This document shows positions 1-12,611 of a stretch of 64,000 bases of DNA, in pieces. The position numbers were made by a program, and so were the translations under genes. How positions within the stretch are numbered: position 1 is the stretch's first letter; every line of letters starts with the position of its first letter. The notes beneath the pieces are model-generated. The model was not told the origin of the DNA, did not search any database, and saw only the letters and a program-made list of their open reading frames with translations. The stretch is from Candidatus Eiseniibacteriota bacterium (GTDB lineage Bacteria > Orphanbacterota > Orphanbacteria > Orphanbacterales > Orphanbacteraceae), in assembly GCA_024276995.1 (NCBI GenBank), contig JAJRWB010000054.1, forward strand, positions 1-64,000. The letters run 5' to 3'.

Positions 1-1
1 C

Positions 2-1024
2 AATGGCAACACGACCACCGAGGCTGATGACATCACAGTGACCGTGAGCCGCTCCGGCCTCGATGCCGGGAGCTATTCCGGAACGGTAACGGTGACGCCC
101 GCCACCGGCGATCCTCAGGATGTTTCGGTCACCCTGACCGTTTCCGGCCCCGGCCCCACGCCCGGCGGCATGGCACTCGTCCCCGCCGGCAGTTTCCAGA
201 TGGGGGGCGACCCGTCGGCGTACTGCGGGAGCGGCGAGCACCAGGTAACACTCACCCACAGTTTCTACGTCGGGCAGTACGAGGTGACGAATCAGGAGTA
301 CAAAGACGCGCTGCAGTGGGCGTACGATCGCGGCTACGTGACCGCTTCATCGTCCACGGCGCAGGACAACCTCGACGGGAGCACGGTGGAGCTGGTCGAC
401 CTGAACAGCTCGTATTGCCAGATCTCGTTCAGCTCCGGCACGTTCACCGTCGATTCGGGAAAAGAGAATTATCCCATGATCGAAGTCTCGTGGTACGGAG
501 CAGCGGCCTATTGCGACTGGCTGAGCCTACAGGCGGGGCTTTCCCGCGCGTACGACCACTCCACGTGGGAGTGCAACGGTGGGAGCCCTTACACCGCCTC
601 GGGCTACCGTCTTCCGACCGACGCGGAGTGGGAGTACGTGACCCAGGTGAACGGAGAACGGAAGTACCCGTGGGGGAACGAGAGTCCGGACTGCAACCGG
701 GCGAATTACTGGGGATGTCTCTCCGGGTCATACCCGAGAACATCAACTGTCGGCACCTACCCATCCGGAGCGGTATCGGTCAGCGGGACATTGGTGTACG
801 ATATGGCTGGAAATGTATGGGAGTGGTGCAACGACTGGCATACCTGCGATCTGGGAAGTTCGCCGGTGTCGAATCCGACCGGTCCCGGCTCCGGCTCGTA
901 TCGGGTGCTGCGCGGCGGCTCGTGGTACGACAACGAGAGCCACCTCCGCTCGGCGGTCCGGTACAGCTACATCCCGGGCAACACGTACGGCTACTTCGGG
1001 TTCCGGGTTGCCCGCAGTCATTGA
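2..1024 (+). CDS. DGR target (variable) protein: Ig-like/BACON-type repeat plus FGE-sulfatase (C-type lectin fold) domain, 5' partial
   Basis: The frame is open to the window edge, so the true start lies upstream. The first ~55 visible codons read as the end of a beta-sandwich repeat of the BACON/Ig type (GSYSGTVTVT, then VSVTLTVSG). A formylglycine-generating-enzyme/sulfatase-modifying domain follows: VPAGSFQMGG, YEVTNQEYKDAL, YRLPTDAEWEYV, YDMAGNVWEWCNDW, RVLRGGSW and GFRVARSH at the end. This C-type-lectin fold is a common DGR target, because its C-terminal surface tolerates changes. The last 43 codons coincide with the variable repeat. Such proteins are normally secreted or surface-exposed ligand binders rather than true formylglycine enzymes. 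The surface location is inferred, since the signal peptide is outside the window. Confidence 0.93.
   Translation, partial: NGNTTTEADDITVTVSRSGLDAGSYSGTVTVTPATGDPQDVSVTLTVSGPGPTPGGMALVPAGSFQMGGDPSAYCGSGEHQVTLTHSFYVGQYEVTNQEYKDALQWAYDRGYVTASSSTAQDNLDGSTVELVDLNSSYCQISFSSGTFTVDSGKENYPMIEVSWYGAAAYCDWLSLQAGLSRAYDHSTWECNGGSPYTASGYRLPTDAEWEYVTQVNGERKYPWGNESPDCNRANYWGCLSGSYPRTSTVGTYPSGAVSVSGTLVYDMAGNVWEWCNDWHTCDLGSSPVSNPTGPGSGSYRVLRGGSWYDNESHLRSAVRYSYIPGNTYGYFGFRVARSH
893..1021 (+). repeat. DGR variable repeat (VR)
   Basis: This 129-bp segment aligns without gaps to 1592-1720 (offset 699). I counted 20 mismatches, and every one lies at a TR adenine: 9 A to T, 9 A to G, 2 A to C. Changed VR positions are 911, 926, 929, 939, 941, 956, 957, 962, 966, 968, 972, 977, 978, 986, 989, 990, 992, 995, 996 and 1017. 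No C, G or T of the TR differs. This is the signature of adenine mutagenesis during DGR retrohoming. It encodes the last residues of the target protein. Confidence 0.97.
997..1016 (+). promoter_or_regulatory. Invariant 3' end of VR, likely initiation-of-mutagenic-homing (IMH) segment
   Basis: Twenty bases at the 3' end of the VR are identical to TR 1696-1715. They are G/C-rich and contain almost no adenine. In characterised DGRs the 3' border of the VR holds the IMH, where cDNA integration starts, so this is the expected place for it. The role is inferred from position. One adenine-derived change (1017) lies just past it, so the exact border is uncertain. Confidence 0.55.
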
Positions 1025-1080
1025 TTCCGGATCGGTTCTGATTTCTGTTTTGCTGTGTTCTGTATTCTGAAATCAGGGGT

Positions 1081-1101
1081 CCAGGGGGCGAAGCCCCCTG
1101 G
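1081..1101 (+). promoter_or_regulatory. Perfect 9-bp hairpin downstream of VR (DGR homing hairpin or terminator)
   Basis: CCAGGGGGC, loop GAA, GCCCCCTGG, starting 60 bp after the VR. DGR targets often have a short inverted repeat 3' of the VR that promotes homing, with a GNA/GRNA-type loop. A run of eight T follows, but nine bases after the stem, so the hairpin could also act as a terminator of the target gene. The sequence cannot separate the two roles. Confidence 0.5.
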
Positions 1102-1200
1102 TCGCCGCGAATTTTTTTTCGGCTTTTTCGGTCCATTTTGGGTGAGCTGCCAGGTTCGCTCCCCGCGGAGAGAACCCGGCGCCGATTGAGGGGGGAAAGT

Positions 1201-1584
1201 ATGGCTGTGAACGAGTCGCCGATCTTTGTCCGCACCCACGATTTTGCCGTCTGGCTTCTCGCTCACACGATCCGCTTTCCGAAGAGCCAGCGGTTCGTCA
1301 TGGCGAGACGGATCGAGGAGACGATTCTCGACTTCCAGGAGAGGCTGATCCGCGCGGCCAGAGCGAAGGGACGCGCCACGGGACGCGAGCTGCAGGAGGC
1401 GGATGTTCTCTTCGAGATCCTCCGGCGACACATCCGAACCTGCGTCGAGCTGAAGCTCTTCACATTGAAACAGTATGAATATGCCGCGGGAAGGCTGGTC
1501 GAGATCGGCCGGCTTCTCGGCGGCTGGATCGGAAAGCAGACGGAATCCACCGGGCGAAAGCAGGTGGTGGGGAGCGGTCCGTAA
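1201..1584 (+). CDS. avd: Avd-like DGR accessory protein (four-helix bundle)
   Basis: 127 aa, the usual size of Avd (accessory variability determinant). Avd is a basic helical pentamer in studied systems; it binds the DGR RT and template RNA and is needed for cDNA synthesis. The protein is helical and rich in Arg/Lys (FPKSQRFVMARRIEE, LQEADVLFEILRRHIR, YEYAAGRLVEIGRLLGGW), matching the four-helix-bundle/Avd family. I chose ATG 1201 because it follows the purine-rich GAGGGGGGAAAGT; a TTG 63 bases upstream would add an unconvincing arginine-rich extension. The gene lies between target gene and TR, the common Avd position, and ends eight bases before the TR. Confidence 0.85.
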   Translation: MAVNESPIFVRTHDFAVWLLAHTIRFPKSQRFVMARRIEETILDFQERLIRAARAKGRATGRELQEADVLFEILRRHIRTCVELKLFTLKQYEYAAGRLVEIGRLLGGWIGKQTESTGRKQVVGSGP

Positions 1585-1591
1585 AGGAGCG

Positions 1592-1720
1592 GGCTCGTAT
1601 CGGGTGCTGAGCGGCGGCTCGTGGAACAACAACGAGAACAACCTCCGCTCGGCGAACCGGAACAACAACAACCCGAACAACACGAACAACAACAACGGGT
1701 TCCGGGTTGCCCGCAATCAT
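1592..1720 (+). repeat. DGR template repeat (TR)
   Basis: This is the template for mutagenic retrohoming into the VR at 893-1021. It has 39 adenines in 129 bases, 20 of them replaced in the VR. In the reading frame of the target it carries 16 AAC codons plus one AAT (runs such as NNNN, NNTNNNN). AAC is the codon whose adenine mutagenesis reaches many residues without making a stop. In the VR, 14 of the 16 AAC codons have changed, to Y, D, S, H, V, I, G or F. The short reading frame across the TR is not a gene. Confidence 0.97.
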
Positions 1721-1939
1721 AGGCATCGCCGGATGCCGGCGGCTCAAGGGCCTCCGGACCGTGCGCGAATATGACAGGAACGTTTCCCGGTCGGCGGGAG
1801 AGTCTCCGGATCGCCGGGAACGAGTGTCCGCCGGCCGAATAGACAAGGGGGTCGTGGCGACTGGTAGGCGAGGGTCGAACGCCGTCACGATCCCGTTTTT
1901 TCAGGAGCCGACGCCGACAGGCAAAGAGGCGTAACTGAT
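1721..1939 (+). ncRNA. Spacer between TR and RT, probable 3' part of the DGR template RNA
   Basis: This is 219 bases without a convincing gene. In the Bordetella phage DGR the RNA between TR and RT is needed for priming of cDNA by the RT-Avd complex, and this stretch holds the equivalent position. It begins with a small hairpin, GGCATC-GCCG-GATGCC, at 1722-1737, directly after the TR. The purine-rich AAAGAGG at about 1923-1929 probably serves as the RT ribosome-binding site. RNA boundaries are unknown. Confidence 0.5.
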
Positions 1940-3007
1940 TTGAAGCGGGCGAAAGATCTTTTTCCGACGGTCTGCGACTTCGGGACGCTCTACGAATCAT
2001 TCCGGAGGGCAAGACGGGGGAAACGGTACAGGGAGTATGCCCTCGCCTTCGAGGCGGACCTCGAGGAGAATCTCCTCGGACTCCGGGAAGAGCTGATCGG
2101 CGGGACGTATCGGCCTTCCCCCTACAGAGTGTTCACGATTCGGGATCCGAAGCGGCGGCGGATCGCCGCGCCCTCTTTCCGCGACCGCGTCGTCCATCAC
2201 GCCTTCTGCTCGGCGGTCGAGCCGTTCTTCGAACGGGGCTACATCCACGATTCGTACGCCTGCCGACTCGGGAAGGGAACTCACAGGGCGCTCGACCGGT
2301 GCCAGGAATACGCGAGACGGTTTCCGTATGTCCTGCAATGCGATGTCCGCCGGTACTTCGCTTCCATCGACCACACGATTCTGAAAGGGGCGATCGCCCG
2401 GCGGATCGCCGATCGCCGGGTTCTCCGCCTCGCGGATACGGTACTCGATCACGCGCCGTTCGACAGGGAAGGCGCTCCCGGCTACTTCCCCGGCGACGAT
2501 CTCTTCTCGCCCCTCGACCTCCGAAGGGGGATTCCGATCGGGAGCCTCACGTCGCAGCTTTTCGCGAACCTCTATCTCGATCGCCTCGATCACTTTGTGA
2601 AAGAGGAACTGCGCGTTCACGGCTATCTCCGCTACATGGATGACTTCCTCCTCTTCGGGGAGAGCAAATCTCTCCTGAGCGACTGGCGGGAGAAGGTCCG
2701 CCGATTTCTCGAACGGCTCCGGCTCGAACTGCATCCCGGGAAGCAGCAGATCTTTCCGGTGCGTAATGGGGTTCCATTTCTGGGGTTTCATATTTTTCCC
2801 AATCGGCGCCTATTGAAGCGGGAAAACATCCGCCGGTTCGTGAAACGGATGCGAGCGTTGCGACGAGCGATCCGATCGGGGTGGAGGAGTGAAGGCGACT
2901 ACCGGACTTCTCTTCTCGCATGGATCGGACACGCCATGCACGGGGATACGTGGAGGCTGCGAACCGCTCTTCTGGGGGCGATGGCGCCGGCATTCGGAGG
3001 CGGTTGA
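1940..3007 (+). CDS. DGR-type reverse transcriptase
   Basis: 355 aa; makes the adenine-mutagenised cDNA from the TR RNA. Palm motifs are in order: QCDVRRYFASID with catalytic Asp135, then IPIGSLTSQ at 198-206, then YMDD at 232-235, then FLGFHIFPNRRLL as motif E/thumb. The IGxxxSQ form of motif 4, where other RTs have QGxxxSP, is diagnostic of DGR RTs and is tied to low fidelity at template A. The start is a TTG at 1940, nine bases after AAAGAGG; no better ATG precedes the conserved region. All catalytic residues are present, so the enzyme looks active. Confidence 0.97.
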   Translation: MKRAKDLFPTVCDFGTLYESFRRARRGKRYREYALAFEADLEENLLGLREELIGGTYRPSPYRVFTIRDPKRRRIAAPSFRDRVVHHAFCSAVEPFFERGYIHDSYACRLGKGTHRALDRCQEYARRFPYVLQCDVRRYFASIDHTILKGAIARRIADRRVLRLADTVLDHAPFDREGAPGYFPGDDLFSPLDLRRGIPIGSLTSQLFANLYLDRLDHFVKEELRVHGYLRYMDDFLLFGESKSLLSDWREKVRRFLERLRLELHPGKQQIFPVRNGVPFLGFHIFPNRRLLKRENIRRFVKRMRALRRAIRSGWRSEGDYRTSLLAWIGHAMHGDTWRLRTALLGAMAPAFGGG

Positions 3008-3081
3008 ACGCGGAGCTTCGGCCGACGGGAAGCGGCGGAACCTCGACGCAGGATCGATTCGAACCGTCCCGCGCAAACCGG

Positions 3082-3166
3082 CCAGAATTTTACCGCCGCG
3101 GCGGCGGTAAATATTCGACCACCTTGCCGATGGAGTCACGACTGAACCCGAATTCCCGAACTCGCA
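3082..3166. repeat. Palindromic dispersed element, copy 1
   Basis: The core TTTACCGCCG-CGG-CGGCGGTAAA spans 3089-3111. It is flanked by CCAGAA on the left and TTCGACCACCTTGCCGATGG on the right. About 80 bases match copy 3 (5718-5803) almost exactly. It lies directly 3' of the minus-strand MNT/HEPN remnant. A reading frame on the minus strand (EFGFSRDSIGKVVE) runs into the palindrome and stops there. Confidence 0.8.
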
Positions 3167-3189
3167 GCAGGCTCACTCGCTCTCCTCGA

Positions 3190-3285
3190 GCGTTCCATCT
3201 GTGTCCGATTCCGGACGAGAGCTTCCGCCTCGTCAATATGGTCCACCATCTGGCAGAGGGAAACGCTCTCTTAATGCCGCGACAT
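3190..3285 (-). pseudogene. HEPN (HepT-like, DUF86) toxin, N-terminal fragment
   Basis: A minus-strand reading begins ATG 3285 with MSRH, meets an in-frame TAA (3271-3273), then continues ESVSLCQMVDHIDEAEALV and RNRTQME before homology ends near palindromic copy 1. This resembles the first ~30 residues of HepT/DUF86 toxins, which normally overlap the end of their MNT antitoxin gene, as here. The catalytic Rx4-6HxY region is missing, so the toxin is dead. The match is judged by eye on a short stretch. Confidence 0.5.
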
Positions 3286-3571
3286 AGAGTTCCTCCGCTT
3301 CCCGCAGGACCTCATCCCGGAAATACTTGCTCAGGCTGCCGGGTGTGTGCAGGTCCACCGAGCGCCCGAGGATGATCGAAAGCTCGTCCTGCATGCGAAT
3401 AAACGCCAATCCGACCCGCACGCCGGGCTGGAACTCGACCAGAATATCTACGTCGCTATCGGGCCGGAAGTCATCGCGGAGAATGGAGCCAAAAAGTGCC
3501 AGCCGGCGAACGCCGTTCGCCCGGCAAAACGCCTCGATCCGCTTTCTTGATATCTCGATGGGGTGTTGCAC
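3233..3571 (-). CDS. MNT-type nucleotidyltransferase (MntA-like antitoxin)
   Basis: 112 aa minimal nucleotidyltransferase. The motif LFGSILRDDFRPDSDVDILV carries the GS and DxD metal-binding signature of the MNT fold. In HEPN/MNT toxin-antitoxin pairs this enzyme AMPylates and silences the HEPN RNase. I chose GTG 3571, preceded by GGAGGGG at proper spacing, over a longer start at 3616. The C-terminal tail (LPDGGPY) overlaps the broken HEPN fragment. With no intact toxin beside it, the gene is probably an orphan or a decaying module. Confidence 0.8.
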   Translation of the reverse strand: MQHPIEISRKRIEAFCRANGVRRLALFGSILRDDFRPDSDVDILVEFQPGVRVGLAFIRMQDELSIILGRSVDLHTPGSLSKYFRDEVLREAEELYVAALRERFPLPDGGPY

Positions 3572-3809
3572 GACAGATCCCCTCCCTGCTCGGCCGGTCG
3601 CTTCAGAACCCCTCACAGTGTCGCATATTCAATACCACCGGACAAGAGGCTGATCACCGACGCGCAAAGGAGGCACATCTTCAGTCATTGAGTCTGCGAC
3701 GAGTTTTTCGCTTTGTCGGGTGAATGAGGATCGGCTCGGAAGATTGAAAATCGAAGATCAAGTGTGTGATCCTTAGCTTGCCTGAAGCAATATGATGTGT
3801 AGGAAGTGA

Positions 3810-3853
3810 CCAATCTTCGACCGCCGCCGCGGCGGTAAATTTTCGACCACCTT
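3810..3853. repeat. Palindromic dispersed element, copy 2
   Basis: The core ACCGCCG-CCG-CGGCGGT is at 3820-3836, flanked by GACCAATCTTCG on the left and TTTTCGACCACCTT on the right. The left arm has diverged (TTCG instead of TTTT), and homology to copies 1 and 3 ends just past the flanks. It lies about 45 bases beyond the end of the minus-strand ATPase gene. The rest of 3617-3898 holds no gene that I can see. Confidence 0.7.
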
Positions 3854-3898
3854 CAACTCTTTTTCAATGCGATTTCAGCTGCGCACAGCCCGGTTTCA

Positions 3899-5209
3899 TC
3901 ACACCGACCCGCTGCGGGTGGCGGCCGCTGCGAAGTAGAGTGGCAGGAACGTGAGCTTCTTCCCGGGAAGTTCGCCGTACGGCCTGGACGAGAAGACCAG
4001 GCCGCCCCTGCAGTTCGGATATCTTTCGAGCAGCCCGTGAAGGCTTCTCAACCGCCCTGCCGGACCACTCTTCACTTCTACTCCATAGATACCCCCTTTC
4101 ACGACGGCGAGGTAGTCGGTTTCAGCGGCACTTCCCCTCGCTTCCCGTGACCAGTAGAAGAGATTGGAGTCGTGGCAGGTCAGCATTTCCTGTCCGACAA
4201 ATTGCTCGGCCATCGCGCCGCGATAGATGTCAAGCAGATCACGTTTCCCATATTCGATGTCGGCGCGTATCCCACAGAGGTGCTGCCATAAGCCGACATC
4301 GACCAGGATCGCCTTGAATCTTTTCGACGACGCTTTCGCACCGAGCGGCAGGCCGGAAGGGCTCGCAGAGGGAATGCGCGTGACCACGCGCGCCTTGCAC
4401 AGAAGATCGAACGCGCGTTTGATTGTCGTGTGGGAATGCCCGTCCGCAAGGTTGGAATATTTGAGCTGCTGTCCAACATTCTGCGCAATCCCGCTCAGTG
4501 TAGTGCCCATGCAGTACGGATCGGCGCGCGGGGCATATTTGGAAAAGTCCTGGCGGTAGGCATCGACAAGCTCGGCATGAATGGCGAACGCCTCCTGAAT
4601 CGATCCGCTTTCCGCGTAGGTTCTAACCGCCTCCGGCATTCCCCCCACAAAGCAATAGGTCCTGAGTTCTTCCAGAAGCATCGCGTGAATCGCATCGGAA
4701 ACAGGTCCGGGTCTCCCGGTGACCACATCAGCAGCCTTCTCCTTTCCCACAGCCCACAAGTACTCGGGAAAGCTCATCGGATACAGATCGAGCGATTGAA
4801 TACGGCCTACGGGAAAAGCTGTTTCCGCGAACGCGAATTCGAGCAGCGAACCGGCAGCCACAACATGGAGTCCGGGGATCTCCTCGTAGAAGTAGCGAAG
4901 GGCGGTGATGGCGCGGGGACAACTCTGAATTTCATCCAGGAAGAGGAGCGTACCTCCGGGGACAATTTTCCTGTTGGTCAAGACCTCAAGTTCAGAGACG
5001 AGCGATTTCGCCTCCAGGTTGCCCTTAAAAACGCGGTGCCATTCCCGATTCCGTTCCAGATCGACCGTGACGACCGAATCGAATTGATCCCGGGCGAACT
5101 GGAGGAGTGAGTATGTCTTCCCCACCTGTCGTGCTCCACGCAGGAGCAACGGTTTACGACGCTCGGCTCTCTTCCAGTCGATCAGACGCTCTTCGATCAT
5201 TCTTCTCAT
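3899..5209 (-). CDS. AAA ATPase of the AAA_14/DUF4143 family
   Basis: 436 aa. The N-terminal ATPase half has Walker A (LRGARQVGKTYSL, residues ~22-34) and Walker B (GGTLLFLDEIQ). The C-terminal DUF4143 half resembles a PD-(D/E)XK nuclease fold: FYWSREARGSAAETDYLAV, then YGVEVKSG. This E-D-ExK-like arrangement is typical of the family. These proteins are widespread in accessory DNA; their cellular role is not established, though toxin-like or defence-like roles have been suggested. The length is normal for the family and the gene looks intact. A strong minus-strand promoter lies 55-83 bases upstream of the start. Confidence 0.85.
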   Translation of the reverse strand: MRRMIEERLIDWKRAERRKPLLLRGARQVGKTYSLLQFARDQFDSVVTVDLERNREWHRVFKGNLEAKSLVSELEVLTNRKIVPGGTLLFLDEIQSCPRAITALRYFYEEIPGLHVVAAGSLLEFAFAETAFPVGRIQSLDLYPMSFPEYLWAVGKEKAADVVTGRPGPVSDAIHAMLLEELRTYCFVGGMPEAVRTYAESGSIQEAFAIHAELVDAYRQDFSKYAPRADPYCMGTTLSGIAQNVGQQLKYSNLADGHSHTTIKRAFDLLCKARVVTRIPSASPSGLPLGAKASSKRFKAILVDVGLWQHLCGIRADIEYGKRDLLDIYRGAMAEQFVGQEMLTCHDSNLFYWSREARGSAAETDYLAVVKGGIYGVEVKSGPAGRLRSLHGLLERYPNCRGGLVFSSRPYGELPGKKLTFLPLYFAAAATRSGSV

Positions 5210-5263
5210 TGCGGTTTCCCCGATTCTCCGTCTGATCTCTCGAAACGATCAAATTACAGGGCT

Positions 5264-5292
5264 ATTATCGACCTTAGCCGATCAAATATCAA
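5264..5292 (-). promoter_or_regulatory. Sigma70-type promoter of the AAA_14 ATPase gene, with direct repeats
   Basis: On the minus strand: -35 TTGATA (5287-5292), a 17-base spacer, -10 GATAAT (5264-5269). Each hexamer matches consensus at five of six positions. The 9-mer CGATCAAAT (plus strand) occurs at 5246-5254 and again at 5279-5287, bracketing the -10 and touching the -35, which would suit a repressor. Confidence 0.65.
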
Positions 5293-5717
5293 GGCATATT
5301 TTTGCGTCCTGGAACCGGAGGCCACGTAAGGGATTCGCGGAAAGGCGTGAAAGAGGGAACCGCGGCGATCGCGGAGGCCCATTCTTCTTCGCCCGCAGGC
5401 CGGAAACCGACACGATTCACGGCGCCTCCGCGTCGACTGCTCCCGCGCGGCGCGCCTCGTCGGCGAAGAGTGGCTCCGCATGAAAGAGATGGAAGCCGAC
5501 CGCGAAGGCGAGGCCGTCGACCTGTCGTAAGGGGGAGGAGGCCCGCCCGGTTCCGGTTTCAACTCCTAACCACGTCGAAGCCGGCCGCGAGAGAGAGTTC
5601 GGGACATCGACATTGATCCAGTAGCCCGGGGTGGCTGGCCTGGAAACCGGGAAGTTATTTCTGATCGAGTAGCCGGGGAGCTGGCTAGCGTAGCAGCCGA
5701 ATCGTCATACAAAAAAC
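5293..5717. other. Gene-poor stretch with a short imperfect direct repeat
   Basis: I see no intact gene here. One plus-strand frame near 5455-5530 reads like a decayed protein end (RLVGEEWLRMKEMEADREG, then a stop), but I cannot assign it. Two similar segments starting GATCCAGTAGCC (5615) and GATCGAGTAGCC (5663) sit 48 bases apart and continue with GGGG and GGCTGGC. Their meaning is unknown. Confidence 0.4.
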
Positions 5718-5803
5718 GACCAGAATTCTACCGCCGCCGCGGCGGTAAATCTTCGACCACCTTGCCGATGGAGTCACGACTGGACCCGAATTCCTGAGTC
5801 CGC
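5718..5803. repeat. Palindromic dispersed element, copy 3
   Basis: The core TACCGCCG-CCG-CGGCGGTA is at 5729-5747. The left flank is GACCAGAATTC; the right flank TTCGACCACCTTGCCGATGG continues through GAGTCACGACTG and ACCCGAATTCC. It is nearly identical to copy 1 over ~80 bases and also lies at the 3' side of a minus-strand HEPN fragment. Confidence 0.8.
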
Positions 5804-5832
5804 AGGAATGCCCCCTCACTTTTCTTCAGCAT

Positions 5833-5970
5833 TCAATCGGTGAGAAGCGTCCTGATCTTCACCGCGAGCGGCGGGAAGTCCGTTGTGGCGATTTCCCACA
5901 GAATGCCGCGATCCACAGCGTCATACCGATGAATCAGACGATTACGCGTGCCGATCGAAAGGAGCCCGGA
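5833..5970 (-). pseudogene. HEPN (HepT-like, DUF86) toxin, C-terminal fragment
   Basis: The minus-strand frame reads GTRNRLIHRYDAVD, RGILWEIATTDFPPLAVKI and RTLLTD, then a stop at 5833. RNRLIHRY is the HEPN RNase signature (Rx4HxY), and the tail matches the end of DUF86 proteins. Upstream the frame loses similarity and meets a TAG near 6022, so only the C-terminal third remains. It could be a second decayed toxin or the lost end of the one at 3190-3285. Between it and the HNH gene (5971-6256) I see nothing else. Confidence 0.65.
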
Positions 5971-6256
5971 ACCCGCGAGGCGGCGAATAAATCGATGATT
6001 TCGCACTTTTTTCCTTGATAGCTATTTTGCGTGTCGGTTTTCGATGTCTCGGGTCTGTGCCTGCATTGTGTCTGAATGCCGCAGGGGCCTCGCCACGGTC
6101 TACTTCGTCCTCCTCGAATCAAGAATGATTCGCCGACGGCTCGAACGGCGATTCCGGCGCTCTGTGGAAGCCGAAAACCGATGCCTTGTACTGTGTGCGG
6201 GGTGAACGGGATCGGCCGATAGTCGAATCGTGATGGATGAGGAGGAGGAAGTGAAG

Positions 6257-7911
6257 ATGCGCACGAACCGCGGTTCCACTGCTGACCCGCAAGGACTGCC
6301 CGCTGCCGTAGCCACCACGAACCCGGAAGAGCTGAGCGCCGCGCCGGCTGCCGGCGGGCGAAAACCGGCCAACGCCGCTGCCACTCTTGACATGCGAAAG
6401 TTGACCGCCACCGCCGCTTACCTCTCGGAAGAGAGCGATCACCAGATCGCCCGGAAGCTCCAATCTCTCTCCCGGTCGGAGCGGCGGATCACCCTGGAAA
6501 TCCTCCTCCACCTGATCGAAGCTGAGAAGCGGAAGCTCCACGTGAAGAAGGGTACCGGTCTCTTTTCGACTTCTGCACGCGCGGACTTCGCTACTCGGAG
6601 TCGGCCGCCGGAAGGAGAATCGCCGCGGCCCGCTCCGTGAGGAACTACCCGAAGGTGCTCGCCCTTCTCCTTTCGGGCGAACTCACTGTCTGTTCTCTCT
6701 CGGCCGTTTCCCGGATTCTGACGCGCGAGAATCACGAAGACGTGATCTCGAGGGTGAAGGGAAAGACAAGGAGGGAGATCGACCAAGTGATTGCGGAGTT
6801 TCGGCCGGTCTCAGCGGTGCGCGAAGTGGTCAAGCCTGTGGTGATCCGCGCCGTCGCGAAATCGAAAACGGTGACAGGCGACGGCTCGTCGGCGGAAGAT
6901 TTGTCTGAACCATCCAACGCGAAGCGACCAGAAATTTACCGCCGCGGCGGCGGCAAATTCTTAGCCACCGCTCTCCCGACTGCGACGACATCCGGAACTC
7001 CATACGCAGCGGTACCGGGCGATGCAATAACATCTGCAACAGTAGACGGCGATTCGAGTGGGGACCACGATGAAGCCGACGGCGACGGGCGCGGTGAGCC
7101 GAAGGGAGACTCGAATCTCAAGCATCGGTTCAAGATTGAGTTTGCCGCGGACGGCGAATTCGTGGGCAACATGGAGAAGATCCGTTCGCTCCTTTCGGGT
7201 CGGTTTCCCGCGGGAGTTTCGATGGAGAAACTCTTCGGCATCGTGATGGACGATTACCTCGACCGGCATTCGTCCGCGAAGCGGAATGAAAGAAGGAAGT
7301 GCCGCGAGGAGAGAGCGATGATTGCGCGAAACGAATGTCAATCGATCGCGGGAGAGATGGCACGGTCACAGCGTAGAGAAAGAGAGCAAAGGAGAGACGG
7401 GGGGAAGACGGCAGAGGAAGTGGGCGTGAGGGAGAGAGCGAAAGGGTTGTAACGGCGAGCGAGGGGAGGCAGAGAGGGAAAAACCGACGGCGGGAAGGTC
7501 TCTTCGCCCGCCGACGATCGGGCGCCGAAGGGGAGAGGCCGCGCCCGACATATTCCCGCCGCGATCCGGGACGACGTTTACGTGCGGGACGGTGGGCGGT
7601 GCACATGGGTCGGGCAGGACGGACGGAAGTGCGGCTCGACGTGGGATCTGGAGATCGACCACATTCACCCCTTCGCCCTCGGGGGAAATCATTCGATCGA
7701 CAACCTGCGGCTCCTCTGCTCAGCGCACAACCGGTTCGAAGGGGAGAGACGTTTCAGCGACCGGTGTTCGGAAGGGGGGGGCGTGTACACGGTTCATCAG
7801 CGACGAGTCGTGCCGGCGGGAGGGGGGAAGACGCGCCTCCGTGGCGGGATCGCCTTTCGATCCGGAGGCGTACCGGGTTTACCGGGTGAGCCTTCCCGCG
7901 CTTCGTGGTAG
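6257..7911 (+). pseudogene. HNH endonuclease gene (DUF222-like N-terminus), broken by a frameshift and a stop
   Basis: Three collinear pieces make one protein of the HNH-signature family common in mobile DNA. The first frame covers the helical N-terminal region (YLSEESDHQIARKLQSLSR) up to ~6567. There the frame shifts by one: CTCTTTT precedes GAC TTC TGC ACG, which restores FCTRGLRYSESAAGRR. The second frame runs to an in-frame TAA at 7450-7452 and resumes in the same frame as RHIPAAIRDDVYVRDGGRC, then the HNH core DLEIDHIHPFALGGNHSIDN and LRLLCSAHN. Palindromic copy 4 sits in frame inside the linker. ATG 6257 follows GGAGGAGGAA. As read the gene is inactive unless the two lesions are sequence errors. 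Confidence 0.8.
6929..6966. repeat. Palindromic dispersed element, copy 4, inside the HNH gene
   Basis: TTTACCGCCG-CGG-CGGCGGCAAA at 6935-6957, one stem mismatch, flanked by CGACCAGAAA on the left and TTCTTAGCCACC on the right. It is read in frame as YRRGGGKF within the variable linker of the HNH protein, so its length adds whole codons. Confidence 0.7.
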
Positions 7912-7923
7912 TCTCGTTCCACG

Positions 7924-9294
7924 ATGAAAAAGAGCGATGGAAACGGGAAAACGAAGGGGAAACCGGCTGGCTCGAAGAACGCCTGCAATGTGTTCATCCA
8001 CACCCTCGGCTGTCCGAAGAACGAGGTGGACAGCGAGGTGATGGCGGGGCTCTTCGCGGAGGAGGGGCTCACCGTAGTGGAGCACCCGGAGGACGCCGGT
8101 CTTCTCGTGGTGAACACATGCTGCTTCATCGACGAGGCGAAGGAGGAGTCGATCGAGGCGATTCTCGAGGCGGGAAAGCGGAAAGGGGCGGGGAAGCTCC
8201 TCGTCACCGGCTGTCTCGCCGAACGGTACGGCCCGGAGCTGCGGGAAGAGATGCCGGAGATCGACGGCCTCGTCGGGGTGAGGTCGATCACCACCGCCGG
8301 CGAGGTGGCGGCGCGGATGGTGGGGGGGGTGCCCGGCTGTGATCGCGACGCCCCCGGGAATGGAGACGCCGACGGCATCTCCGAAAGGCGGCGCTCTCTC
8401 GGGACGACCCATACGGCGTACATCAAGATCGCGGAAGGATGCGACCGGCCGTGCGCCTTCTGTTCGATCCCGTCGTTCCGCGGTCCGCTGGCGAGCCGGT
8501 CGGTCGAATCGCTCGTTCGCGAAACGGAGCGCCTCGCCCGTCTCGGCGCGAAGGAGATCGTCCTCGTCGGCCAGGAGACGACCGCGTTCGGCGCCGACCG
8601 GGGCGAAAAGGACGCCCTCCCGCGCCTCTTCGACGCCCTGGCGGAAATCGAGGCGGTGCGCTGGATCCGCCTTCTCTACGCCTACCCCACGGGAGTCACC
8701 CAGGCGCTCGTCGAGCGTCTCGGCAGGGGGAACGCGTGCCGCTATATCGACATGCCGGTGCAGCACATCAGCACCTCCGTGCTGAAGCGGATGCGACGCG
8801 GCATGTCGGGGGACGAGGTGCGCCGCGCCGTCGACCGCGTCCGCTCCGCCGGCGGAAAGATCACTCTCCGCTCGACGGTGCTCGTCGGCTTCCCCGGCGA
8901 GACGGACACCGACTTTCGCCTCCTCGCCGACTTCGTGCGCGAGAGCCGCTTCGATCATCTCGGCGTCTTTCGTTTCTCCCCCCAGGAGAAGACCGCCGCC
9001 GCGTCGCTCGACGGCGCCGTGCCCGAGGAGATCAGCCGGGAGCGCCAGCAGGAAATCCTCGACATCCAGACGGAAATCATGGATGAGAAGGGGGAGCGCC
9101 GCGTCGGCGAGAGACTCACCGTCCTCGTCGATGAGATCCACGAAGGAGAAAGCTGGTGCCGCACAGAACGGGACGCCCCCGAGATCGACGGCGTGGTGAT
9201 CCTCCCCGGCGCGGCGGGATCGCCGGGGAAGTTCCTCGAGGCGAAGATCGTCGACTCGCGCGGCCCGGTCCTCTTCGGCGAGAAGGTGTCGTAA
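7924..9294 (+). CDS. rimO: Ribosomal protein S12 methylthiotransferase RimO
   Basis: 456 aa radical SAM enzyme that adds a methylthio group to an Asp of ribosomal protein S12. The N-terminal UPF0004 domain has its three cluster cysteines (HTLGCPKNEVDSE, VNTCCFIDEA, VTGCLAERYG). The radical SAM triad GCDRPCAFC is Cys173, Cys177, Cys180. A TRAM domain (GERLTVLVDE) closes the protein. LGCPKNEVDSEVM with FIDEAKEES favours RimO over its relative MiaB. ATG 7924 begins a lysine-rich leader typical of the family. The stop is separated from the polA start by one base, so they are co-transcribed. Confidence 0.95.
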   Translation: MKKSDGNGKTKGKPAGSKNACNVFIHTLGCPKNEVDSEVMAGLFAEEGLTVVEHPEDAGLLVVNTCCFIDEAKEESIEAILEAGKRKGAGKLLVTGCLAERYGPELREEMPEIDGLVGVRSITTAGEVAARMVGGVPGCDRDAPGNGDADGISERRRSLGTTHTAYIKIAEGCDRPCAFCSIPSFRGPLASRSVESLVRETERLARLGAKEIVLVGQETTAFGADRGEKDALPRLFDALAEIEAVRWIRLLYAYPTGVTQALVERLGRGNACRYIDMPVQHISTSVLKRMRRGMSGDEVRRAVDRVRSAGGKITLRSTVLVGFPGETDTDFRLLADFVRESRFDHLGVFRFSPQEKTAAASLDGAVPEEISRERQQEILDIQTEIMDEKGERRVGERLTVLVDEIHEGESWCRTERDAPEIDGVVILPGAAGSPGKFLEAKIVDSRGPVLFGEKVS

Positions 9295-9295
9295 C

Positions 9296-11974
9296 GTGGG
9301 GCGCTCTCTCCTACTCATCGACGGTTCGGCTCTCATCTTCCGTTCCTACTTCGCCTTCATCCGCAATCCTCTCGTCAACTCGAAGGGAGAGGAGACGAGC
9401 GCCGTCTTCGGCACCGTCTCCGCCCTCATCCGGCTGCTGCGCGATAAGAAGCCGGACCACGTCGTCTTCGTTCTCGACACGGGAAAGCCGACGTTCCGCC
9501 ACGAGATGTATGAACCGTACAAGGCGAACCGCCCGGAGATTCCCGACAGCCTGAAAGCCCAGTTCCCACTGGTGAAGGAGGCGGTGGCCGCGATGTCGAT
9601 CCCGATTCTCCTCCGCGACGGCTTCGAGGCGGACGACGTGATCGGCGCCCTCGCTGCGCGCGCCGCCGGCGAGGGGATCGACACGACGATCTATTCGGGA
9701 GACAAGGATTTTCTCCAGCTCGTCCGGCCGGGGGTGTCGGTGCTCGCCCCGACCCGCGACGGGGAGCAACTGTGTGCCGCCGACACCGACGTGGAGGAGC
9801 GGATCGGCGTTCCACCGGGCCGCGTGGTCGATCTCCTCGCCCTGATGGGCGACGCGAGCGACAACGTGCCGGGCGTCCCCGGCGTCGGACCGAAGACGGC
9901 GGTGAAACTCCTCGGTCGGTACGGCTCGCTCGACGGGATCTATGAGAACGCAGGGGCGATTCCCGGGAAGCTCGGCGAGAAGATCCGCTCGAACCGTAAG
10001 AGCGCCTACCTTTCGAAGGATCTCGTCACCATCCGGACCGATGTCCCGCTCGACGTCGGCTTCGACGATCTCAGGCGCCGGGAGATCGACCGCGAGAAGG
10101 CGGCCGACATCTTCCAGCGCCTCGAGTTCCACCGGCTGCTCGAGGAGATCGGCGGCACGGCGGCGGAGGAGGAGGAGAGGGAATACGCACTCGTCCGGAC
10201 CACGGAGGAGCTGAGCGATGTCGCCGCGATGCTCGAAGAGAGCGGACGCTTCGCCTTCGACACGGAGACGACGTCGATCGACGCGATGCGCGCCGAGTTG
10301 ACCGGCATCTCGGTCGCCGACCGGCCGGGACGGGCGTGGTACATCCCGGTGAAGCACGCCGGCGATCCGAATCTCCCTCTCGAGAGGGTGCGCGAAATCC
10401 TCGCGCCCCTTTTCCGCGACGAGCGGATCTCCCGGATCGCCCAGAACGCGAAGTACGATCTCCTGGTACTCGAACGGGCCGGTTTCGACATGAAGGATGT
10501 TTCCTCCGACCCGATGATCGCGTCGTATCTCCTCGACCCGGGAAGGCGCAGCCACGGCCTCGACCATCTCGCCCTCGTTCACCTCAACCACAAGATGATC
10601 CCGATCACCGACCTGATCGGCAAGGGACGGAATCAGAAGACGATGGACGAGCTGACGGCGGAAGAGGTGAGCGGCTACGCCTGCGAGGACGCCGATTTCA
10701 CCTTTCGCCTCGCCGCGATCCTCGAGGAACAGCTCGAACCGGCGAAGCTCGACTCGCTCTACCGCGATGTCGAGATTCCCCTTCTTCACGTGTTGAAGAG
10801 AATGGAACGAACGGGCGTCTCTCTCGACGTCCCCTTCCTCGAGAAGATGTCGAACAAACTCGCCGGGAAGATCGCCGGCTTGGAGAAGAAAATCCACGCC
10901 GAGGCGCGTGGAACGTTCAACGTGAACTCGCCGCTGCAACTCCAGAAAGTGCTTTTCACCGATCTCGGTCTCAAGCCGGTGAAAAAGACGAAAACCGGCT
11001 TTTCCACCGACAACGACGTCCTCCACGCCCTCTCGGCGATCCATCCCCTCCCGGCGATGATCCTCGAATACCGCCAGCTCATGAAGCTGAAGGGAACGTA
11101 CGTCGACGCGCTCCCGAAGCTGATCCACCCGGACACCGGAAAGATTCATACCTCGTTCAACCAGACGGTGGCCGCCACCGGGCGGCTCTCGTCGTCCGAC
11201 CCGGGGCTGCAGAACATCCCGATCCGCACCGACATCGGCCGGGAGATCCGCAAGGCGTTCCTCCCCGGCGGAGACGACCGGGTGATCCTCTCGCTCGACT
11301 ACTCGCAGATCGAACTGAGGCTCCTGGCGCACCTGTCGGGCGACCGGCGGATGATCGACGACTTCCTCTCGGGCGCCGACATCCACCGGCGGACCGCCGC
11401 CACCCTCTTCGGGGTGGACGAGGCGGACGTCACCGGCGAGATGCGCTCCCGCGCGAAGGCGGTGAACTTCGGCATCCTCTACGGCATGGGCGCCTTCGGG
11501 CTTTCGTCGAGGCTCGGCATCCCGCGCGGTGACGCGGCGCGGTTCATCGAGGAGTATTTCGCCGCTTATCCCGGCGTGAAGAAGTATCTTGAAAAGACGG
11601 TGGAAGACGGGAGGGAGAAGGGTTACGTCGAGACGATGCTTCACCGACGCCGCTTCCTCCCCGATCTTTCGAGCTCGAACGGACGGCTCCGGTCGTTCGC
11701 CGAACGGACGGCGGTGAACACACCGATCCAGGGCTCGGCGGCCGACCTGATCAAGCTCGCCATGATCGCCGTCGACCGCGCCCTCGCCGATGGGGGATAC
11801 GGGACGAAGATGATTCTCCAGGTGCACGACGAACTCGTGTTCGACGTCCCACAGAAGGAGCTCGACGAAGTGCGGAGCCTGGCCGCCGGGCTGATGGAGA
11901 ACCGGATGGACCTCGACGTTCCTCTCATCGTCGACGCCGGGCATGGGAGGAACTGGCTCGAGGCGCACGGGTAA
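9296..11974 (+). CDS. polA: DNA polymerase I
   Basis: 892 aa, three domains. An N-terminal 5'-3' exonuclease/FEN domain (~1-290) with YSGDKDF and the helix-hairpin MGDASDNVPGVPGVGPKT. An intact 3'-5' proofreading domain (DTETTS, NAKYDLLVLE, YACEDADF). A family A polymerase domain with motif A (LDYSQIELRLLAHLSG), the O-helix (RAKAVNFGILYGMGAFGLS) and motif C (VHDELVFDVP). Many bacterial Pol I proteins have lost proofreading residues; this one has them. GTG 9296 is the start, one base after rimO. It fills Okazaki gaps and repairs DNA. Confidence 0.97.
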   Translation: MGRSLLLIDGSALIFRSYFAFIRNPLVNSKGEETSAVFGTVSALIRLLRDKKPDHVVFVLDTGKPTFRHEMYEPYKANRPEIPDSLKAQFPLVKEAVAAMSIPILLRDGFEADDVIGALAARAAGEGIDTTIYSGDKDFLQLVRPGVSVLAPTRDGEQLCAADTDVEERIGVPPGRVVDLLALMGDASDNVPGVPGVGPKTAVKLLGRYGSLDGIYENAGAIPGKLGEKIRSNRKSAYLSKDLVTIRTDVPLDVGFDDLRRREIDREKAADIFQRLEFHRLLEEIGGTAAEEEEREYALVRTTEELSDVAAMLEESGRFAFDTETTSIDAMRAELTGISVADRPGRAWYIPVKHAGDPNLPLERVREILAPLFRDERISRIAQNAKYDLLVLERAGFDMKDVSSDPMIASYLLDPGRRSHGLDHLALVHLNHKMIPITDLIGKGRNQKTMDELTAEEVSGYACEDADFTFRLAAILEEQLEPAKLDSLYRDVEIPLLHVLKRMERTGVSLDVPFLEKMSNKLAGKIAGLEKKIHAEARGTFNVNSPLQLQKVLFTDLGLKPVKKTKTGFSTDNDVLHALSAIHPLPAMILEYRQLMKLKGTYVDALPKLIHPDTGKIHTSFNQTVAATGRLSSSDPGLQNIPIRTDIGREIRKAFLPGGDDRVILSLDYSQIELRLLAHLSGDRRMIDDFLSGADIHRRTAATLFGVDEADVTGEMRSRAKAVNFGILYGMGAFGLSSRLGIPRGDAARFIEEYFAAYPGVKKYLEKTVEDGREKGYVETMLHRRRFLPDLSSSNGRLRSFAERTAVNTPIQGSAADLIKLAMIAVDRALADGGYGTKMILQVHDELVFDVPQKELDEVRSLAAGLMENRMDLDVPLIVDAGHGRNWLEAHG

Positions 11975-11993
11975 CGATGGAGGACGACGCGGC

Positions 11994-12611
11994 GTGGTCA
12001 TCGCGGTGACGGGAAACACGGGCGGTGGGAAAAGTGCGGTGACGGCGCACTTCGCCCGGTGGGGCGCCGACGTGATCGACGCCGACGCGGTCGGGCGGAG
12101 CATCTGGCAACGGGACGCGGACATTCGCGCAAGGATCATCGCCGCCTTCGGCGAGGAGGTCACCGGCGACGACGGCGAGGTGGACCGGAAGAAACTGGGG
12201 GGGGTCGTCTTTTCGAGCCGCGACAAGCTCGCGCGATTCGATGCGATCATCCAGCCCGCACTTCGCCGTGAAATCGCCCGTCTCCTCGAAGAGGCGCGCA
12301 GGCGCGAGCCGGTGACCGTGCTCGACGGGGCGCTCCTGTTCGAATGGGACCTTTCCCATCTTGCCGACCGTGTCATCGTGGTCACCGCGCCGCGAGAGGT
12401 GCGGGCCGCGCGGATTGTAACGAGAGACGGTATCAGCATAAAGGAAGCACGGGAGCGATTGCGGCTCCAGACACCGGAAGAGAAGAAAGCGGGCCGCGCG
12501 GATTTCGTGATCCGCAATGACGGCACGCCCGAGGAACTCGCGCGGGAAAGCCGCGCGGTATGGGAACGGATCGTTTCCGCCGGAGGGAAATCGAATGATC
12601 GACGCGAATGA
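11994..12611 (+). CDS. coaE: Dephospho-CoA kinase
   Basis: 205 aa; phosphorylates the 3'-hydroxyl of dephospho-CoA, the last step of CoA synthesis. The P-loop reads VTGNTGGGKSAVT. DADAVGR and LDGALLFEWDLSHLADRVIVV fit the CoaE fold, and KKAGRADFVIRNDG is the conserved C-terminal motif. I start it at GTG 11994, about ten bases after GATGGAGGA, giving the usual N-terminus; an earlier TTG would overlap polA. Its end overlaps the prfB start, so translation is probably coupled. Confidence 0.93.
   Translation: MVIAVTGNTGGGKSAVTAHFARWGADVIDADAVGRSIWQRDADIRARIIAAFGEEVTGDDGEVDRKKLGGVVFSSRDKLARFDAIIQPALRREIARLLEEARRREPVTVLDGALLFEWDLSHLADRVIVVTAPREVRAARIVTRDGISIKEARERLRLQTPEEKKAGRADFVIRNDGTPEELARESRAVWERIVSAGGKSNDRRE

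What the first reader, a model, noticed from the sequence alone, without database searches (positions are those of the whole stretch)
1592..1720. All 20 TR/VR differences fall on TR adenines; TR is an AAC-codon array
Ungapped 129-bp alignment: 20 mismatches, 20 at A, none at C, G or T, although A makes up only 39 of 129 bases. Sixteen AAC codons in frame keep Phe, Tyr, Ser, Asp, Gly, His, Val and Ile reachable without stops; 14 of the 16 have changed in the VR. A to T and A to G are equal (9 each) and A to C is rare (2), which may reflect the RT's misincorporation bias.
Basis: seen in the sequence. Interest (0 to 1): 0.8.

Follow-up and report, generated by a model that had tools for sequence, protein, structure and literature searches.

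The report
Bacterial chromosomal diversity-generating retroelement (TvpA-like)
A bacterium from a thinly sampled phylum carries an ordinary protein-diversifying cassette that copies a template rich in AAC codons into secreted binding proteins while scrambling only the adenines, a well-known system in which this copy mainly stands out for having an unusually large number of changeable codons.

Summary
TR 1592-1720 and VR 893-1021 differ at 20 of 129 positions, all TR adenines (9 A>T, 9 A>G, 2 A>C; p about 5e-13); 14 of 16 AAC codons changed. It is a textbook diversity-generating retroelement (DGR): target gene with VR, hairpin, avd, TR, RT. The RT's best solved match is 8ub7_A (BPP-1's RT by recall); the predicted target fold's best VIA-align match is Treponema TvpA (Z 29.3). 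Refinements: (1) at least three target genes; a second VR on another contig has 24-25 A changes plus one extra in-frame codon. (2) Not all 20 differences need be RT errors: 1610 is probably a template C>A drift (the other 100 of 101 RGG-type TRs have no A there), and 1716 may be the IMH/IMH* difference. (3) The A>C deficit is the general DGR pattern, not this RT's signature (p=0.64 against 76 pairs of relatives). The 16 AAC codons exceed all 165 other TR/VR pairs (maximum 13). All 10 in-frame TR/VR length differences surveyed are extra VR codons inside AAC runs; AAC slippage is already proposed in print. New member of a known kind; interest low.

The parts
2..1024 (+). Target (variable protein) gene, 5' end cut by the contig start; FGE-sulfatase / C-type-lectin fold, VR at its 3' end
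   Evidence: Pfam FGE-sulfatase E 2.3e-44; window is G000:C36:1-64000; model pLDDT 91.4, best VIA-align match TvpA 2y3c Z 29.3, rmsd 2.3, 234 aligned
893..1021 (+). Variable repeat VR1
   Evidence: 129-bp alignment to the TR, 20 mismatches all at TR A
998..1021 (+). Candidate IMH (3' end of VR): 19 bases identical to the TR, then one A/G difference, then TCAT
   Evidence: the A/G difference is also in the second VR; role inferred from BPP-1
1081..1101 (+). Hairpin downstream of the VR: 9-bp perfect stem, GAA loop
   Evidence: DNA fold of 1070-1115 z -3.4; its pattern occurs at 2 places in the genome, both downstream of a VR; hairpins of stem 8 or more within 110 bp downstream of 47 of 206 VRs against 1 of 205 and 0 of 203 control stretches
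1201..1584 (+). avd, accessory variability determinant
   Evidence: NCBIfam NF033474 DivGenRetAVD E 7.2e-26, over its cut-off; Pfam bAvd E 2.2e-16; PHROG 'Avd protein of DGR' E 1.2e-19
1592..1720 (+). Template repeat TR, 16 AAC codons
1610..1610 (+). TR adenine in the Arg codon of the RGGSW motif (AGC in TR, CGC in both VRs); probably a template drift, not an RT error
   Evidence: of 101 RGG-type TR/VR pairs 99 have CGN in the TR, 1 CAC, and this one AGC
1697..1720 (+). Candidate IMH* (3' end of TR)
   Evidence: inferred by analogy with BPP-1
1721..1939 (+). TR-RT spacer, expected to form the RNA that recruits RT-Avd and primes cDNA synthesis
   Evidence: position only; fold of 1700-1945 z -1.4, not significant
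1940..3007 (+). DGR reverse transcriptase (355 aa) with IGSLTSQ and YMDD
   Evidence: Pfam RVT_1 E 5.1e-19; best solved match 8ub7_A E 8.8e-50, GIPIGSLTSQLFAN aligned; only RVT_1 match in the genome

Best explanation
A chromosomal, apparently non-phage diversity-generating retroelement of the TvpA / FGE-fold target type. The TR is transcribed between avd and rt; the RT-Avd complex copies it into cDNA, misincorporating only opposite adenines; the cDNA replaces the VR of a target gene, guided by the IMH at the VR 3' end and probably helped by the downstream hairpin. The AAC array places almost all variability (32 of 39 adenines) in codons that can become 15 amino acids and never a stop, in the segment that in FGE forms the active site. 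One TR serves at least three probably secreted or membrane-anchored target proteins, one in cis and at least two elsewhere in the genome. Shown: the parts, their order, A-only differences in two VRs, target fold. Inferred: activity, cDNA mechanism, secretion, ligand-binding function.
For: Exact recount. Avd, RT and target families. RT best solved match 8ub7_A with the DGR-type SQ motif aligned; the SQ dipeptide marks DGR RTs in PMC3521204 (passages). Second VR on contig C49: 24-25 A substitutions, the only non-A one at the last base. N-terminal halves of two further FGE target genes on C55 and C43, each overlapping C49 by exactly 141 bp (Pfam), so with C36 at least three target genes. Of 83 other loci (L012-L095 without the window's own L092), 68 gave 76 TR/VR pairs of the same make: 1181 A against 34 non-A mismatches. 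Target model: TvpA top by VIA-align Z, TaqVP (Z 13.5) and Mtd (Z 12.9) also listed.
Against: No reads or population data, so current activity is not shown. The 5' part of the cis target and one target's 3' half are missing from the assembly. The TR-RT spacer RNA does not fold better than shuffles (z -1.4). Two of the 20 differences are probably not RT errors.
Confidence: 0.97

Rival explanations
1. The DGR is intact but idle: the A-only differences are a relic and the template is drifting (1610 C>A now writes Ser at a structural Arg).
For: TR 1610 departs from the other 100 of 101 pairs in having an A at that base of the Arg codon, and both VRs keep the Arg.
Against: No non-A mismatch in VR1 and only one, at the last base, in VR2; RT and Avd frames are open. 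A long-dead element should gather non-A changes. Transfer of cDNA need not reach 1610.
Confidence: 0.15
2. A duplicated gene 3' end under ordinary divergence or a reassortment cassette, with the A bias arising by chance or composition.
For: TR and VR are similar and share the protein frame.
Against: 20 of 20 at A (4.9e-13); no comparable A-, C-, G- or T-specific pair elsewhere in 64 kb; RT and Avd lie next to it.
Confidence: 0.01
3. The downstream hairpin (1081-1101) is only a transcription terminator of the target gene, not a retrohoming element.
For: It lies past the stop codon, and a run of 8 T follows 10 bases after the stem.
Against: The terminator scan did not call it; hairpins are strongly enriched downstream of VRs (47 of 206 with stem 8 or more; controls 1 of 205 and 0 of 203); in BPP-1 a stem-loop 3' of IMH raises retrohoming efficiency (PMC12875486, passages). 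Both roles may hold, and controls away from gene ends cannot separate them.
Confidence: 0.4

Closest known systems
Treponema denticola TvpA DGR (solved target 2y3c)
   Same: FGE-fold target with C-terminal VR; top VIA-align match of the model (Z 29.3, rmsd 2.3, 234 aligned, 31% identity); several targets per TR (recalled for Treponema)
   Different: Different bacterium; only moderately similar sequences; targets here have a signal-peptide-like start or a possible lipobox by inspection only
Bordetella phage BPP-1 DGR (bRT-Avd, Mtd; 8ub7 taken as its RT by recall)
   Same: Order VR - hairpin - avd - TR - rt; RT with IGSLTSQ and YMDD aligned; A-specific mutagenesis; AAC-rich TR (20 of 23 mutable adenines in AAC context, PMC12875486 passages)
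   Different: Target is FGE-type, not Mtd (Mtd Z 12.9); chromosomal, no sign of a phage; hairpin starts about 60 bp beyond the VR, in BPP-1 immediately after IMH; natural VRs of relatives do not show the A>C excess at the second A of AAC reported for bRT (A>C 78 of 650 changes)
DGRs of L012 (Cloacimonadota), L013/L014 (Neomarinimicrobiota), L015/L016/L018 (Chloroflexota)
   Same: RT 48-52% identical; TR/VR pairs found in five of these six (not L016), A-specific with 15-23 A changes
   Different: 8-13 AAC codons in the TR against 16 here

Membership tests
Diversity-generating retroelement | TR/VR repeat pair with differences confined to TR adenines | tested here: met
   20 of 20 in VR1; 24-25 A against 1 non-A (last base) in VR2
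Diversity-generating retroelement | RT of the DGR clade with SQ in motif 4 (and YxDD) | tested here: met
   GIPIGSLTSQLFAN and RYMDD aligned with 8ub7_A, E 8.8e-50; SQ as the clade mark: PMC3521204
Diversity-generating retroelement | Accessory protein Avd | tested here: met
   NF033474 over cut-off; PHROG Avd
Diversity-generating retroelement | Target with C-type-lectin fold, VR at its C terminus | tested here: met
   TvpA Z 29.3, TaqVP Z 13.5, Mtd Z 12.9
Diversity-generating retroelement | IMH / IMH* at the 3' ends of VR / TR | tested here: inconclusive
   19 identical bases plus one A/G difference shared by both VRs; role not tested
Diversity-generating retroelement | Stem-loop 3' of the VR | tested here: met
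   9-bp stem at 1081-1101; survey enrichment; function not tested; the second VR's hairpin is weaker (z -0.5)
Diversity-generating retroelement | Adenine mutagenesis and retrohoming activity | not testable with these tools
   needs reads or experiment
Formylglycine-generating enzyme (as an enzyme) | The pair of Cys in the conserved GGS-CHES-Y-C segment (copper site, recalled) | tested here: not met
   Alignment to 6s07_A shows no Cys at these places in the VR: a binding scaffold rather than an FGE at this snapshot
Group II intron RT / maturase | NCBIfam TIGR04416 over its cut-off | tested here: not met
   156.1 bits, cut-off 300

The most novel reading that the evidence does not exclude
AAC arrays act as in-frame triplet repeats during mutagenic retrohoming, with a net bias to lengthen the VR: the RT slips back on AAC runs and adds whole diversifiable codons, so that DGRs grow binding loops as well as change them. 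All 10 in-frame length differences seen (10 of 207 pairs) are extra codons in the VR, all inside AAC/AAT runs (14% of TR bases), none is a deletion; the second target of this window's TR is one of them.
Probability: 0.3. Interest if true: 0.5.

Novelty: new member of a known kind. Interest (0 to 1): 0.17.

Why it matters
It adds a DGR from a phylum with only 7 genomes held (all in one family; RT found in 2 of 7), and the most AAC-rich template of the 166 TR/VR pairs compared, with 15^16 (about 6.6e18) possible proteins from the AAC codons alone. If the insertion-only pattern in AAC runs holds in larger sets, it would give a testable handle on how the RT handles repeated AAC and how binding loops change length.

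Tried and rejected
Rfam found nothing in 1-8000. No solved Avd matched by sequence. The spacer RNA was no more stable than shuffles. The phage collection gave one weak RT match only: no sign that the cassette belongs to a known phage. The idea that this RT has its own substitution bias was tested and dropped (p=0.64; VR2 differs from VR1). VR1/VR2 sharing of a base at 1610 and 1716 is weak evidence alone (7 of 11 doubly changed sites share the base); the case at 1610 rests. One search's pooled spectrum also holds 7 changes to N. The frame in the surveys was chosen as the one with most AAY codons, which favours high AAC counts for all alike. Rows dropped: one search kept pairs with at least 8 A and at most 3 non-A mismatches, so its 1181:34 ratio is inflated by the filter; 15 of 83 other loci gave no pair (my first notebook entry, gives 69 loci with a pair; the count without the window and its own copy L092 is 68). 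One search kept nA 8 or more and nO 3 or less; two gaps of -1 (L044, L097; L097's TR holds Ns) are counted as gaps but not as in-frame. The direction control (300 of 300 for both +3 and -3 in AAC runs) tests only the alignment step, on synthetic random sequence; the seeding step was not controlled. L202/L203 (seen again as L243/L244) share one TR, so the 10 cases are 9 templates at most.

Full report
Observation. The alignment of TR 1592-1720 with VR 893-1021 was recounted: 20 mismatches in 129 columns, all at TR adenines, 9 A>T, 9 A>G, 2 A>C; 39 A in the TR; 16 AAC codons, 14 changed. The chance of 20 of 20 on A is 4.9e-13. In the whole 64-kb window this is the only strong pair of repeats whose mismatches are confined to one base.

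What it is. The parts lie in the order target gene with VR (2-1024), hairpin (1081-1101), avd (1201-1584), TR (1592-1720), spacer, RT (1940-3007). Avd is called by NCBIfam, Pfam and PHROGs. The RT is the only RVT_1 match in the genome; its best solved match is 8ub7_A (E 8.8e-50; named only 'Reverse transcriptase' in the output, BPP-1's RT by recall), with GIPIGSLTSQLFAN and RYMDD aligned. The SQ dipeptide marks DGR RTs (PMC3521204, passages seen). The target is FGE-sulfatase by Pfam. Its model (30-row alignment, pLDDT 91.4, pTM 0.92) matches Treponema TvpA best by VIA-align (Z 29.3, rmsd 2.3, 234 aligned; FGEs follow at about 27-28) and also TaqVP (13.5) and Mtd (12.9); by Foldseek E-value FGEs come first and 2y3c is rank 15. 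The two Cys of the FGE segment are absent from the VR, so it is unlikely to be an active FGE. The neighbours (open frames that read as rimO-, polA- and coaE-like at 7924-12611, by inspection, not searched) look cellular, and the phage collection gave one weak RT match.

More targets. The TR finds a second VR at C49:337-467. In codon register it has 24-25 A substitutions (13-14 G, 7 T, 4 C) and one non-A at the last base, plus one extra codon inside the first AAC run. All 16 AAC codons are changed in it, and 33 of 39 adenines are changed in at least one VR (with one placement of the extra codon). C49 starts inside the target gene; the ends of C55 and C43 hold N-terminal halves of two FGE genes and both overlap C49's start by exactly 141 bp, as a k-mer of an assembler would. 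So there are at least three target genes, and one 3' half, with its VR, is missing from the assembly.

Which of the 20 are RT errors. In 101 TR/VR pairs (window included) whose VR carries RGG near the start, 99 TRs have CGN at the Arg, one has CAC, and the window alone has AGC. The A at 1610 is thus more likely a recent template change, read as A>C only because the VRs keep the Arg. TR 1716, in the 3' homology, has the same G in both VRs and may be the IMH/IMH* difference. Sharing alone is weak evidence, since 7 of 11 doubly changed sites share the base. Without these two, 18 remain, all in AAC codons: 9 T, 8 G, 1 C.

Spectrum. RT relatives were collected from named genomes (80 loci), one unnamed relative (L093-L095) and viral contigs. 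Of 83 other loci of the first two sets, 68 gave 76 TR/VR pairs with 1181 A and 34 non-A mismatches under a filter that favours A: 590 G, 419 T, 172 C; the window does not differ (p=0.64). With viral contigs, 165 other pairs give 1110 G, 797 T, 397 C. At the first A of AAC: 346 T, 301 G, 144 C; at the second: 381 G, 191 T, 78 C. DiGReF had already found G commonest and C rarest in 155 elements. For BPP-1's RT in E. coli a raised G misincorporation (A>C in the VR) is reported in NAC context (PMC12875486, passages); the natural VRs here do not show such an excess, by selection or by RT difference.

AAC array. The TR has 16 AAC codons; the 165 other pairs have 0 to 13, mean 7.9. It is the richest of this set, but AAC tandem repeats are a known TR mark (PMC6642488, passages; PMC12875486).

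Length changes. A gapped survey of 292 sequences (291 loci and the window; 249 with a TR-like partial match; 206 unique TR/VR pairs from 172 unique TRs) gave 11 pairs with gaps: 8 of +3 and 1 of +9 in the VR, all in AAC/AAT runs, and two of -1. With VR2 of this genome there are 10 in-frame cases of 207, all longer VRs, none shorter. In the 8 cases printed in full the codons in the lengthened run all end in C, or T where the TR has AAT, as copies of AAC/AAT would. Runs of AAY make up 14% of TR bases. The aligner finds +3 and -3 equally well in synthetic sequence. In L021 and in this genome a sibling VR of the same TR has no length change, and L202/L203 share a TR but have +9 and +3, so a single TR contraction is not the simplest account, though it is not excluded. 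Slippage in steps of three in AAC repeats, as insertion or deletion, was proposed by the authors' reference 16, Wu et al. 2018, as cited in PMC12875486; that paper itself is not held. Searches for more on this found only PMC12875486 as a relevant DGR paper. So the slippage is not new; the insertion-only count may be.

Hairpin. The 9-bp hairpin begins about 60 bp past the VR. Its pattern occurs at two places in 3.76 Mb, both downstream of a VR (the pattern was drawn from these two). The second copy is weaker (z -0.5). In the survey stems of 8 or more occur within 110 bp downstream of 47 of 206 VRs, against 1 of 205 and 0 of 203 stretches 300 bp away. Terminators may account for part.

Verdict. 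An ordinary, well-formed chromosomal DGR in a phylum with 7 genomes held. New member of a known kind.

Noticed in passing
L004 (C49) 1-471, L010 (C55) 1-750, L011 (C43) 1-732: Assembly breaks inside the DGR target genes, with exactly 141-bp shared ends: two incoming genes and one outgoing, so one target's VR half is lost from the assembly.
   Followed up: partly
window 3089-3111, 3817-3839, 5727-5749, 6935-6957; C55 about 1820-1842; C80 about 234813-234835: A GC-rich palindrome (TACCGCCGC..CGGCGGTAAA) at six places in the genome, four of them in the first 7 kb of the window beside the DGR and one on the small contig C55 that also holds a target gene; two copies lie within open frames (6637-7452 and on C55).
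   Followed up: partly
window 3082-3156 and 5720-5794: A 75-bp near-identical direct repeat (4 mismatches) containing that palindrome.
   Followed up: no
window 3233-3616 (-) and 3899-5209 (-): A small nucleotidyltransferase (PF01909) and an AAA_14 / DUF4143 ATPase next to the DGR.
   Followed up: no
window 6637-7452 and L010 1247-2494: Related long open frames sharing the stretch EIYRRGGGKF (read), with no Pfam match.
   Followed up: no
165 surveyed TR/VR pairs: At the second A of AAC, natural VRs have few A>C changes (78 of 650), unlike the raised rate reported for BPP-1's RT in E. coli.
   Followed up: partly
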